DNA from: Candidatus Thiobius zoothamnicola
GTDB lineage: Bacteria; Pseudomonadota; Gammaproteobacteria; Chromatiales; Chromatiaceae
Direction: 5' to 3'
NCBI GenBank assembly: GCA_030826945.1
Contig: JAPQLC010000015.1
Span: 1-64,000, forward strand
Length of the DNA stretch: 64,000 nucleotides
Of this stretch, positions 23,333-26,138 are shown piece after piece. A program made the translations under genes and the position numbers. Numbering within the stretch: position 1 is the first letter of the stretch; every line of letters begins with the position of its first letter. Under the pieces are notes generated by a model, which did no database searches, was not told where the DNA came from, and was given only the letters and a program-made list of their open reading frames with translations.

Positions 23333-23495
23333 AGATAATCCTGCCGGGTGCTTTGCTCAGAAAGCGTGATGCCATTCGCAACTTTGTTCTGAACTGGAAT
23401 CGTCTAATTTAGATAATTAAATTTGGAATATAAATACGAGAGAAATCGTATGAAAAATCCGTTCTGATTTCATTTCTATGGTAAATAACTTTAGT
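23333..23495. other. intergenic stretch before the REP cluster
   Basis: No gene is supported from the cbiX stop to the first REP-like palindrome. The whole 375-base gap to the transposase start (23333-23707) is otherwise made of REP-like units. Confidence 0.5.
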
Positions 23496-23525
23496 GTGGA
23501 GGCTTACCCGCCCTATGGGCTTAAG
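23496..23525. repeat. REP-like palindromic unit 1
   Basis: GGAGGCTTACCCGCCC then TATGGGC. It belongs to the same family as the units at 23608, 24315, 24732 and 26177, which share the core CCCGCCCTA(C/T)GGGC or its complement. A small extra hairpin (AAGAAG / CTTCTT) follows at about 23522-23538. Confidence 0.6.
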
Positions 23526-23607
23526 AAGTATGCTTCTTATTATCTTTTCTTGTCGTGAAATGCACGTAAAGCGCAAAAGCAGTGCCTAGAAAAACAACAA
23601 TGAGCAG

Positions 23608-23702
23608 TGTAGGGCGGGAAAGCCTCCCACTAAAGCCGTTTTCAATACAAATCGAAATCGCTGAAATAGCTTTGGTGCGGAAGCGCATCCCGCCTTCTGG
23701 GC
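23608..23702. repeat. REP-like palindromic units 2 and 3
   Basis: TAGGGCGGGAAAGCCTCCC at 23608-23629 is in inverse orientation to unit 1. GTGCGGAAGCGCATCCCGCC with TTCTGGGC lies at 23676-23702. The second ends six bases before the transposase ATG, as is common for transposases that act on their own REP elements. Confidence 0.6.
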
Positions 23703-23707
23703 AAATA

Positions 23708-24274
23708 ATGTACCGTAAAACCAAGCTGCAAAAGTTACACTTGCTTTATGCCAAATTAAATACGTGCCTTGTTCCCGGTGGCACCTTTTTCTTCACTGTT
23801 GCATTACTTGAACGCAAACGGAGCCTATTGACCGAGCATGTCGATGATTTGCGCCTGGTTTTTTCCGCCGCAAGGAAACATCGGCCTTTTATTATTGACG
23901 CCATTGTGATTTTACCCGACCACCTGCATTGCATCTGGACTCTGCCGCCAGGGTACAGTGATTTTTCAACCCGTTGGCACGACATCAAATTCCGTTTCGC
24001 CGCCAAAATACCGCATGGTGAAAGGCGTTCAATACGTCGGCAAAATAAAGGCGAACGGGGTATTTGGCAACGTCGTTTTTGGGAGCATGTGATTCGTGAC
24101 GGGCAGGATTTATCACGGCATATTGATTATATCCATTACAATCCGGTCAAACACGGTCATGTTGACCGGGTCACTGATTGGCCGTATTCCAGTTTCCATC
24201 GTTATGTCCGGTTGGGAGTTTTGCCGCAGAATTGGGCAGCTGGTGAGGAGGTCAGGCAAATGGATGTGGAGTGA
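23708..24274 (+). CDS. REP-associated tyrosine transposase (RAYT, Y1 family)
   Basis: About 188 residues from ATG 23708. Y1-type HUH nuclease: PDHLHCIW carries the HxH metal site and HIDYIHYNPVKHG carries the nucleophilic tyrosine region; WPYSSFHRYV is a hallmark of the RAYT branch. An upstream extension of the frame reads through REP sequence and is rejected. Single-copy RAYTs are thought to mobilise REP palindromes. REP-like units flank it on both sides. No intact IS ends are seen. Confidence 0.88.
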   Translation: MYRKTKLQKLHLLYAKLNTCLVPGGTFFFTVALLERKRSLLTEHVDDLRLVFSAARKHRPFIIDAIVILPDHLHCIWTLPPGYSDFSTRWHDIKFRFAAKIPHGERRSIRRQNKGERGIWQRRFWEHVIRDGQDLSRHIDYIHYNPVKHGHVDRVTDWPYSSFHRYVRLGVLPQNWAAGEEVRQMDVE

Positions 24275-24314
24275 GTCGAAAATTTTATTTCGATGAATGT
24301 GGGTTTAAACGCGG

Positions 24315-24360
24315 AAGGCGGGATGCGCCTGTCATACAGGCTTTCCCGCCCTACGGGCTA
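24315..24360. repeat. REP-like palindromic unit 4
   Basis: GGCGGGATGCGCCTGTC then ATACAGGCTTTCCCGCCC and TACGGGC. It is nearly identical in layout to the unit at 24732, with an inner CCTGT / ACAGG pairing. It lies 40 bases after the RAYT stop. Confidence 0.75.
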
Positions 24361-24441
24361 AGCTTTTCGTGTTGCGTCTATGGCAAGATAGGTGATAAAC
24401 AGACCTGCGCCCACCAATAATAGACTAATAAATATCTCCAT
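24358..24441 (-). CDS. 27-residue single-span membrane microprotein
   Basis: ATG 24439-24441 to TAG 24358-24360. The peptide MEIFISLLLVGAGLFITYLA followed by a short polar tail (IDATRKA) is one hydrophobic helix. GAGGA lies ten bases upstream, and the stop of the preceding small membrane-protein gene is two bases before the ATG, so they form an operon. Function unknown. The last codon abuts REP unit 4. Confidence 0.5.
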   Translation of the reverse strand: MEIFISLLLVGAGLFITYLAIDATRKA

Positions 24442-24443
24442 CT

Positions 24444-24669
24444 TTACATATCCTCAAGTTGGGTGATTTTATGTTCTATCTTGTTGTGCAAAACCCAGCA
24501 GCCAACAAAGATTGAAACAAGCGCCGTGACAGCACTAAAAATCAAAAAATGATTCTCCGTATCGAAATGCGTAATCAGCCATCCCATTAAACTGACAGCT
24601 GTTATGATTAAAACACCAAGCCATTTTCAAATAGGCGATTTGTTCTTTGGAACGATCAAGTTTTGACAT
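24444..24669 (-). pseudogene. two-span small membrane protein, frameshifted in an A run
   Basis: The reading MSKLDRSKEQIAYLK starts at ATG 24669. If one A is removed from the following AAAA run, the frame continues WLGVLIITAVSLMGWLI, then a polar loop, a second hydrophobic helix (FSAVTALVSIFVGCWVL) and a charged tail ending EDM at 24444. The family, as I recall it, comprises short two-helix proteins starting with a similar KEQIAYLK motif. Length 226 bases (3n+1) agrees with a single inserted base. The annotated state is broken unless this is a sequencing slip or a programmed shift. Confidence 0.55.
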
Positions 24670-24731
24670 GGTTTTGGTTTGGTGTATTCAGATGATGCGA
24701 TTGACTTTATGTCAAGTTGTTTAAACACAAA

Positions 24732-24776
24732 ATGCGGGATGCGTCTGTCATGCAGGCTTTCCCGCCCTACGGGCTT
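24732..24776. repeat. REP-like palindromic unit 5
   Basis: TGCGGGATGCGTCTGTC then ATGCAGGCTTTCCCGCCC and TACGGGC, a close copy of unit 4. It lies immediately downstream of the pentapeptide-repeat gene stop on that gene's strand. Confidence 0.75.
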
Positions 24777-24791
24777 TCACGTCCTACGGCT

Positions 24792-25646
24792 CTACGTTTC
24801 TATATTTAGATAGTCAGGAAGTATGGTTTTATCTTTTCGAGCTTTCTCAATTCCTTTGCATTTGTCTAAATTCTCAGTTTTAGAGAAATCCGATTTCATT
24901 ATTTCTGTATTCTCATTAAAAACAGCATTCTGGAAATCAGACTCATGGAAAATTGAACCAACCAAATTGCTGTTAGAAAAGTCTGTATTTTCAAATACAC
25001 AGTCATAGAAACAAGAATCTGACAAGTTAAAGTCTATCAGTCTAGCCCGACTAAAATCTGCGTAGGGAAGATAGATGTTAGATAAGTCATATTTCTTCCT
25101 GTTTGAATCTTTTTCAAATTCAAAATGTTCTTTTTTACTTAATTCACGAATTGTTGCAACAGCCGCTTCAATATCTATGTTGAGGATATTATCTTCTTTT
25201 TCATCTTTTGATTCACCAGTGTTTTCTTCTTTACCTCTTGATTTATCACAGACTTCGCCTTCAGATCTTTTTTGATTATGCCGGATAAAGGCGCAAAGCG
25301 TATTAACAATTACTATCAATTCACTAGGATTGGTTTCTGCAATTTTTCCTAACGCATAAATTGCGCCTTGGCGTACCGCTTCGCTATCTTTTCCCAACAG
25401 TTCAATAGATTTGGCAAAGGTTTCAGCAAGTAAACGATCATCATCTGTTTTATTTTGTTTTTTCAGTGATTGTGTGCGTTCGTAGGCAAGATACAAACCA
25501 GCAACTACCAAAGGAAACGCTAATAGATATGCCAACCCCCTTGTTGCTTCTTCATATATAGATGTTACACAAAAAGAAATATACCCCCAACTCCCTACAA
25601 ATAATATCGCAATAATCCAAATGGATACTTTCTTAAGTGTAGACAT
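24792..25646 (-). CDS. membrane-anchored pentapeptide-repeat protein
   Basis: 284 residues. Two N-terminal transmembrane helices (about 7-30 and 37-55) are followed by a HEAT-like stretch (AVRQGAIYALGKIAE), an acidic low-complexity linker (about 125-160), then pentapeptide-like repeats from about 195 (YADFSRARLIDFNLSD, FENTDFSNSNLVGS, ESDFQNAVFN). Such proteins occur in stress or defence settings, but no activity can be assigned. The gene is clearly more AT-rich than its neighbours, suggesting transfer. Its ATG directly follows the stop of the upstream GRDP-like gene (TAG-ATG). Confidence 0.75.
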   Translation of the reverse strand: MSTLKKVSIWIIAILFVGSWGYISFCVTSIYEEATRGLAYLLAFPLVVAGLYLAYERTQSLKKQNKTDDDRLLAETFAKSIELLGKDSEAVRQGAIYALGKIAETNPSELIVIVNTLCAFIRHNQKRSEGEVCDKSRGKEENTGESKDEKEDNILNIDIEAAVATIRELSKKEHFEFEKDSNRKKYDLSNIYLPYADFSRARLIDFNLSDSCFYDCVFENTDFSNSNLVGSIFHESDFQNAVFNENTEIMKSDFSKTENLDKCKGIEKARKDKTILPDYLNIET

Positions 25647-26138
25647 CTACGCATGTAACTGGTAGTCAGAAAATGAAGGACGTTTTTGCATAAAAACATC
25701 ATTGCCTTCAATTCTTCTGCCGCAATTGGGGCAACGTTTGCTGCTTTGCCACAAGTGTTCAGGCAGGGTTATAAATTCACGGATATACAGTTCTTTGGTT
25801 TGCTTCCAGGCCATTTCCAGGTTGTTGGCGTCTTGTTCATCCCGCATACCGAAATAGGGAAAATGGTGTAAAAAGTAGCCGAAGCATGCTTCACAGTCTT
25901 GCGCATATTTTTGCGTGTCCAGGATATGCAGGTGCCAAAAATCATCTACCTGAGTTGATGGCACGATGGCGATATTCGGGGTTTGCAGGCATAGAACCAG
26001 GAATTTTCTGTATTCGTCAGAAACTTCCAGAGCGTAGTCAAATGACCAACCCAGTCCTTCTTCTTGATCCATTGCCTTGATCACAATGGGTTCCAGGTCG
26101 AGTTGTTGCAGTATGTAGTCTTGGTGTTGCTTGAGCAT
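25647..26138 (-). CDS. GRDP-like protein with zinc-finger-like CxxC tail
   Basis: 163 residues resembling the glycine-rich domain-containing-protein-like family (PF07173): QVDDFWHLHILDTQKYAQDC and FLHHFPYFGMRDE are its two signatures. A C-terminal CPNCGRRI adds a CxxC that may bind zinc with upstream Cys. The family has no established biochemical role. It forms a tight two-gene unit with the pentapeptide-repeat protein downstream. A REP-like unit lies just upstream of its start. Confidence 0.7.
   Translation of the reverse strand: MLKQHQDYILQQLDLEPIVIKAMDQEEGLGWSFDYALEVSDEYRKFLVLCLQTPNIAIVPSTQVDDFWHLHILDTQKYAQDCEACFGYFLHHFPYFGMRDEQDANNLEMAWKQTKELYIREFITLPEHLWQSSKRCPNCGRRIEGNDVFMQKRPSFSDYQLHA

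What the first reader, a model, noticed from the sequence alone, without database searches (positions are those of the whole stretch)
24358..24669. Tiny two-gene membrane operon with an A-run frameshift
A 27-residue single-span peptide follows two bases after a two-span protein gene. The latter is open in two frames joined at an AAAA run; deleting one A gives one clean 74-residue protein. This could be a genuine pseudogene, a sequencing slip, or a slippage site. Such pairs of very small membrane proteins are usually missed by gene finders.
Basis: partly seen in the sequence, partly recalled or inferred. Interest (0 to 1): 0.5.

Follow-up and report, generated by a model that had tools for sequence, protein, structure and literature searches.

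The report
Broken copy of paired membrane microproteins
The two tiny genes are one copy, with its first gene knocked out of frame, of a widespread and apparently unnamed pair of very small bacterial membrane proteins that sits in scattered places in many genomes and behaves like a mobile two-part module, perhaps a membrane toxin with its antidote.

Summary
In detail: a 27-residue one-span ORF starts two bases after a two-span gene that is broken between frames at an A4 run. The pair is real. Relatives of the joined protein occur across Pseudomonadota, Campylobacterota and other phyla. All 58 intact gene-1 copies of a first set, and 35 of a second, are followed directly by a 24-43 residue one-span ORF, mostly with the same 2-nt spacer. 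Both genes evolve under purifying selection. No curated family credibly matches them.

The copy is most likely a young pseudogene: 18 of 21 near-invariant positions survive and gene 2 is intact. Gene 1 is broken in at least 25 of 129 copies; gene 2 alone was broken in none of the 118 that could be judged. Patchy, multicopy spread, varied neighbours and occurrence on tiny plasmids and a prophage suggest a toxin/antidote-like or phage-exclusion membrane module. That function is inferred, not shown.

The parts
24444..24669 (-). Gene 1 of the pair: two-span membrane protein, about 75 codons in relatives, here broken
24621..24630 (-). Junction of the two frames (AAAA at 24624-24627); compared with relatives the gene is two bases short here
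24358..24441 (-). Gene 2 of the pair: 27-aa single-span peptide, intact
24442..24443 (-). 2-nt spacer between stop of gene 1 and start of gene 2 (2 nt in 35 of 58 intact relatives)
24451..24455 (-). GAGGA, Shine-Dalgarno-like motif inside the 3' end of gene 1 (SD-like motif in the 16 nt before gene 2 in 54 of 58 intact relatives)
24719..24775 (+). 57-nt repeat with a GTAG-type REP core, upstream of the pair
24303..24359 (+). 57-nt repeat with a GTAG-type REP core, 89% identical to the other, directly downstream of the pair (overlaps the last two bases of gene 2)
23702..24274 (+). RAYT-like IS200/Y1 transposase gene beside the pair (ORF listed from GTG 23582); 'RAYT-like' rests on the REPs and on recall
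   Evidence: Pfam Y1_Tnp E 1.5e-4, 22.3 bits, just under the cut-off of 23

Best explanation
Shown: the locus is a copy of a conserved two-gene module. Gene 1 encodes a helical hairpin of about 75 residues (two predicted membrane spans, charged ends); gene 2 starts at once after it, behind a Shine-Dalgarno-like motif that lies inside the end of gene 1, and encodes a 24-43 residue single-span peptide. In this copy gene 1 loses its frame near codon 16, and the product of its own start has no span left; gene 2 is intact. Inferred: the two proteins meet in the inner membrane; translational coupling keeps the gene 2 product in step with gene 1; the gene 1 product disturbs the membrane when unpaired and the gene 2 peptide holds it harmless (toxin/antidote-like). 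The module spreads horizontally and often decays by loss of gene 1, as happened here, recently. The window copy is then inactive, or an orphan antidote. My confidence is about 0.95 for the module, 0.8 for a true recent loss of gene 1 and 0.4 for the toxin/antidote mechanism; the number given is for the whole chain.
For: Pair conserved: 58 of 58 intact gene-1 copies in set 1 (less L119, whose start is lost) and 35 in set 2 carry gene 2 directly downstream; spacer 2 nt in 35 and -1 nt in 10 of the 58. Purifying selection: pN below pS in 17 of 17 gene-1 pairs and in 15 of 16 valid gene-2 pairs, the last pair being identical. Hairpin: AlphaFold2 mean pLDDT 93.1, helices 3-35 and 41-74. Gene 2 duplicated in tandem on C. 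coli plasmid pN29710-2. Spread: 15 of 369 class genomes, own included, 28 of 200 genomes of the phylum of a Nitratiruptor genome, 22 of 201 of the family of a Methylococcaceae genome, but 0 of 56 genomes of the window's own family; up to 6 matches per genome, two of them halves of one copy; two 3.6-3.7 kb plasmids, one prophage and one IMG/VR contig. Decay: 18 copies with only gene 1 broken against 0 with only gene 2 broken; by length (75:28 codons) that has probability (75/103)^18 = 0.0033, and 0.012 for the 14 small lesions (formula and value for 14; classes as corrected). Recent loss: 18 of 21 near-invariant positions kept.
Against: No toxicity, interaction or expression was measured. The decay asymmetry was thought of after seeing the data, rests on my reading of frames, treats copies as independent, and a 28-codon ORF can hide missense damage. 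Gene 2 is a membrane peptide, unlike the soluble or RNA antitoxins of the systems it is compared with. Few copies lie on records known to be mobile: 2 of 72,556 plasmid records (none) and 1 of 50,697 phage records (none). Many copies come from metagenome assemblies, where some breaks could be sequence errors. No reads are available for the window.
Confidence: 0.4

Rival explanations
1. Phage-exclusion or abortive-infection module: the pair sits quiet in the membrane and depolarises it, or blocks entry, when a phage infects; the gene 2 peptide keeps it quiet.
For: Patchy spread, multicopy genomes, carriage by a prophage and tiny plasmids, an isolated bicistron with varied neighbours. Weak: 3 of 18 members touch a PADLOC '2TM effector' model, best E 0.0028.
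Against: In the wider scan only 1 of 26 members reaches E 0.001 against any PADLOC model, and that is another model; ten neighbours from seven loci were annotated and none is a known defence gene apart from toxin-antitoxin genes; no infection data.
Confidence: 0.25
2. Accessory subunits: the two microproteins stabilise or tune a larger membrane complex, as small single-span subunits of oxidases or transporters do.
For: Small single-span peptides often act so (recalled knowledge); sequence constraint on both genes.
Against: No neighbour is shared by more than 4 of 62 loci, and the distribution is patchy, multicopy and often decayed, which does not fit a core complex.
Confidence: 0.15
3. The window copy is intact in the cell and the break is an assembly or sequencing error.
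For: 18 of 21 near-invariant positions kept, no other lesion seen in gene 1, gene 2 intact.
Against: The change is two bases next to a run of only four A; gene 1 is also broken in many other copies, so real loss is common, though some of those could be errors too.
Confidence: 0.15
4. Programmed frameshifting at the A run makes the full gene 1 protein in the window organism.
For: Frame and residues on both sides are conserved; a shift at this run would give a 74- or 75-residue product.
Against: A4 is short, no stop or rare codon lies at the site, 93 intact relatives need no shift, and lesions elsewhere differ in place and kind. Stimulator structures were not searched for.
Confidence: 0.03

Closest known systems
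SpoIISA/SpoIISB/SpoIISC of Bacillus subtilis (type II toxin-antitoxin with a membrane toxin; passages of review PMC6562991 seen)
   Same: Membrane toxin gene followed by a small protein antidote gene; the second antidote arose by gene duplication (as gene 2 is doubled on the C. coli plasmid).
   Different: SpoIISA is 248 aa with three spans and a cytosolic domain; SpoIISB is a natively disordered 56-aa protein that binds the cytosolic domain. Here gene 1 is about 75 aa with two spans and gene 2 is itself a membrane peptide. No sequence relation was tested.
Small hydrophobic type I toxins (TxpA, BsrG, and the two-span 83-aa YoyJ; named in the passages of PMC6562991)
   Same: Very small membrane proteins.
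   Different: Their antitoxins are RNAs; here a second translated gene is conserved. No Rfam family was found in window 23400-25000.
Holin/antiholin pairs and small accessory subunits of membrane complexes (recalled)
   Same: Tiny membrane proteins, sometimes two in tandem.
   Different: No constant neighbour such as a lysis gene or a complex was found.

Membership tests
The two-gene module described here (no published name found) | Gene 1: about 75 aa, K..IAYLK-x-WLG type N-terminal motif, two spans | tested here: met
   Window fragments score 59 and 16 bits in order; 18 of 21 near-invariant positions kept. The gene is broken.
The two-gene module described here (no published name found) | Gene 2: short single-span ORF directly downstream | tested here: met
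   27 aa, spacer 2 nt, profile match 34.5 bits
Toxin-antitoxin system | First product is toxic alone and the second neutralises it | not testable with these tools
   Needs expression in a laboratory strain
Toxin-antitoxin system | Two small adjacent genes, patchy distribution, some copies on mobile elements | tested here: met
Type I toxin-antitoxin | Antisense RNA antitoxin | tested here: inconclusive
   No Rfam match in 23400-25000; 3 promoter-like sites against 1.4 (sd 1.3) in shuffles; antisense transcription not testable
SpoIISABC | 248-aa toxin with three spans and a cytosolic domain | tested here: not met
   Gene 1 is about 75 aa with two helices
Integron gene cassette | attC site beside the gene | tested here: inconclusive
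   No well-folded strict attC pattern in 27 loci, window not among them; one attC-like stretch by eye, with a looser core site, upstream of the pair in L015
Known anti-phage system | Match to a PADLOC model | tested here: not met
   Best 0.0028 in 18 members; 1 of 26 members at 0.00069 to an unrelated-looking model; gene 2 not scanned there

The most novel reading that the evidence does not exclude
A new, phylum-crossing kind of two-protein membrane module in which a 75-aa hairpin and a 28-aa single-span peptide form a toxin/antidote pair wholly inside the membrane, spread by mobile elements, with the antidote gene kept when the toxin gene dies.
Probability: 0.35. Interest if true: 0.8.

Novelty: new variant of a known kind. 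Interest (0 to 1): 0.58.

Why it matters
It points to a family of paired microproteins, found in 28 of 200 genomes drawn from the phylum of a Nitratiruptor genome and 22 of 201 from the family of a Methylococcaceae genome, that four curated libraries do not describe. Both genes are small enough to be skipped in annotation. If one is toxic and the other neutralises it, this would be a toxin/antidote pair acting between transmembrane helices, easy to test in E. coli.

Tried and rejected
Integron cassettes: first guess, because copies are multiple and some lie close together; strict attC patterns were not found beside 27 loci. The test is strict and can miss sites, and L015 looks attC-like by eye, so it is set aside as a general vehicle, not excluded.

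REP-flanked passenger: the window pair lies between two REPs next to a RAYT-like gene, but a search with that protein found no related transposase in the other loci (one hit at E 0.29) and repeats that flank other copies are of other kinds, so not general. An upstream ORF in L004 looked RAYT-like by eye; one search did not find it.

Shared neighbours (62 loci): apart from the pair itself the widest is a HicB-like gene in 4 loci (Pfam-confirmed in L043 and L066); the other shared clusters join two loci each, among them L016/L070, which share both flanks, and L053/L058. A PIN/VapC cluster joins L040 and L045 (Pfam-confirmed in L045); VapB and PIN stand in L041; vapBC is annotated in the H. canis prophage. 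No control loci were read, so no enrichment is claimed.

Fold search: nothing at E 0.001 or better; a helical hairpin is generic. Rfam: nothing. Papers: seven searches on the pair or its possible setting listed no paper that is recognisably about this pair, and one concerned RAYTs; the library lacks most subscription papers. PMC6562991 and PMC3733652 were seen as passages; the others only as search listings.

Dropped or corrected rows: the gene-2 comparison L006/L075 used a wrong offset and was dropped. The motif count at the end is superseded. One search's classes were corrected: L119 (start codon lost) and L163 (two frame changes, gene 2 cut by the contig end) moved to undecided; L162 and L166 counted as gene 1 broken and gene 2 absent; L146 left undecided because its gene 2 is an overlapping 52-residue ORF. 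Undecided in all: set 1 L033/L035, L066, L068, L119, L123; set 2 L146, L159, L160, L163, L173, L174. One search read L162 on the wrong stretch; one search repeated it. Not read: 20 of 40 rows (no locus given, weaker scores, or already read as L074). L105 and L177 are intact pairs read but not counted.

Full report
What is there. On the minus strand the window holds a 27-residue ORF (24441-24358) that begins two bases after a TAA (24446-24444). The gene that ends there starts at 24669; frame A closes after 44 residues at 24535, frame B is open from 24626 to 24444, and the two meet at AAAA 24627-24624. The joined product has two hydrophobic spans, the 27-mer one, the truncated frame-A product none. 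The only other match of the 521-base stretch in its own genome is a piece of the flanking repeat, and profile or protein searches of that genome find only this copy.

The pair is a real, conserved module. A search with the joined protein matched 2 of 92 related genomes, one of them the own genome, and none of the 56 of the same family; the relative (42% identity) carries its own 28-residue one-span ORF one base downstream. Widening the search gave matches in 15 of 369 class genomes, own included; 36 named loci, by record titles mostly Gamma-, Beta- and 'Delta'-proteobacteria with single ones labelled Acidobacteria, Binatia, Troglogloeales, KSB1 and Nitratiruptor; 28 of 200 genomes of the phylum of that Nitratiruptor genome (Campylobacterota, recalled), itself included; and 22 of 201 of the family of a Methylococcaceae genome, two seed genomes included. 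A wider phylum draw gave 2 of 398, own included, with fewer candidates scored per genome. Members also lie on two cryptic plasmids of 3.6-3.7 kb, in a Helicobacter canis prophage where both ORFs are annotated as hypothetical proteins, and on one IMG/VR contig.

Architecture. Set 1 holds 82 copies and set 2 holds 47 (classes corrected). Set 1 is the copies that were read, plus two plasmids and the prophage; set 2 is the loci, for the better-scoring 19 of 40 rows only. In set 1 all 58 intact gene-1 copies have gene 2 (less L119). Gene 2 begins 2 nt after the stop in 35 of 58 and overlaps it by one in 10; an SD-like motif lies in the 16 nt before it in 54 of 58. The script printed an inner ATG for L009, whose likely start is the GTG one base after the stop, and assigned L017 and L025 less surely. 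In set 2, 35 more intact pairs were seen, some so divergent that the layout is the clearest likeness; L146 has a longer, overlapping 52-residue ORF in place of gene 2. On the C. coli plasmid gene 2 is present twice in tandem. Substitutions show purifying selection on both genes: for example pS 0.63 against pN 0.09 in gene 1 and 0.61 against 0.05 in gene 2 for Endozoicomonas versus Kushneria. The pairs compared overlap and are not independent.

Structure. AlphaFold2 on 24 aligned members gives a confident hairpin, helices 3-35 and 41-74, mean pLDDT 93.1, pTM 0.72. Foldseek finds no PDB match at E 0.001 or better, and a sequence profile finds none at E 1.

The lesion. 39 of 48 other sequences have exactly one residue between LK and W[LQ]; the other 9 differ in motif; none lacks the residue. 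The window gene is thus two bases short, not one base long. Eighteen of 21 positions conserved in at least 90% of A6 are kept, and the exceptions are I to V, I to V and L to M, so the break is young, or an artefact. Gene 1 is broken elsewhere in different ways: frame changes in L010, L018, L023, L032, L034, L051, L071, L169 and L175, nonsense codons in L014 and L069, and a split with about 1.1 kb between its halves in G264 (L033/L035).

Decay pattern. Set 1: 14 copies with only gene 1 broken (11 by small lesions), 5 with both broken or gene 2 absent, 0 with only gene 2 broken, 5 undecided. Set 2: 4 (3 small), 2, 0 and 6. If single breaks fell by length (75 to 28 codons), no gene-2-only case in 18 has probability 0.0033, in the 14 small ones 0.012. 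The searches were anchored on gene 1, so gene-2-only losses should have been easier to find than gene-1 losses. The test was thought of after seeing the data and copies are treated as independent.

Mechanism. Shown: two constrained microproteins, predicted membrane spans, spacing that fits translational coupling, patchy multicopy spread, frequent loss of gene 1. Inferred: the products pair in the membrane; gene 1 product is the active and costly one, gene 2 product restrains it. SpoIISABC of B. subtilis is the closest working model: a membrane toxin with a small antidote encoded after it, the antidote gene duplicated (passages of PMC6562991). Here both partners are membrane microproteins. A phage-exclusion role or a role as accessory subunits is not excluded.

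Known or not. No family library gives a shared credible hit. Of 26 divergent gene-1 members, single members reach E 6e-4 to 9e-5 against families that differ from library to library; earlier scans agree: the joined window protein reaches at best E 0.0012, 18.9 bits against a cut-off of 32, and 3 of 18 members touch a PADLOC 2TM effector at E 0.0028 or worse. Gene 2 was scanned against Pfam (window peptide only), NCBIfam and PHROGs (window and G084 peptides) without a credible match, not against PADLOC. Seven paper searches listed nothing recognisable as this pair. The window locus itself is an ordinary broken copy; the family it exposes is the interesting part.

Setting in the window. The pair lies between two direct 57-nt repeats (24303-24359, 24719-24775; 89% identical) whose core begins with GTAG, as in the RAYT-linked REPs of PMC3733652 (passages seen), next to a RAYT-like gene. 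The 18-nt core occurs three times in the whole genome at up to one mismatch, all three here.

Noticed in passing
window 23497-24775: A RAYT-like transposase and three GTAG-type REP cores; the core occurs only three times in the genome at up to one mismatch, all within this 1.2 kb, so this looks like a REPtron whose REPs have not spread.
   Followed up: partly
L075:12-410: C. coli plasmid pN29710-2 carries gene 2 twice in tandem directly after gene 1.
   Followed up: partly
L033 and L035 (G264 contig 130): Gene 1 is split near codon 18, with about 1.1 kb between its two halves and an ORF that looks like an IS630-type transposase (type recalled) just after the break.
   Followed up: partly
L006, L027, L029, L034, L122 upstream of gene 1: A -10-like hexamer lies about 6-9 nt before the start codon in several members, suggesting leaderless mRNAs (by eye).
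   Followed up: no
L043, L046, L065, L066, L040, L041, L045, L076: Known toxin-antitoxin genes (HicB-like, VapB, PIN/VapC) lie within a few kb of the pair; names confirmed by Pfam for L041, L043, L045 and L066. No control was read.
   Followed up: partly
gene 1 codons 15-37 across broken copies: Many breaks in gene 1 seem to fall in or near the first membrane span; noted by eye, not tested.
   Followed up: no
L015, about 50-115 nt upstream of gene 1: An attC-like stretch with a looser core site suggests this one copy may be an integron cassette (by eye).
   Followed up: no
window 24792-26138: Two further minus-strand genes lie upstream of the pair: a 284-aa pentapeptide-repeat protein with hydrophobic N-terminal segments, and a 163-aa protein with a CPNC motif; Pfam supports only the pentapeptide repeats.
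   Followed up: no
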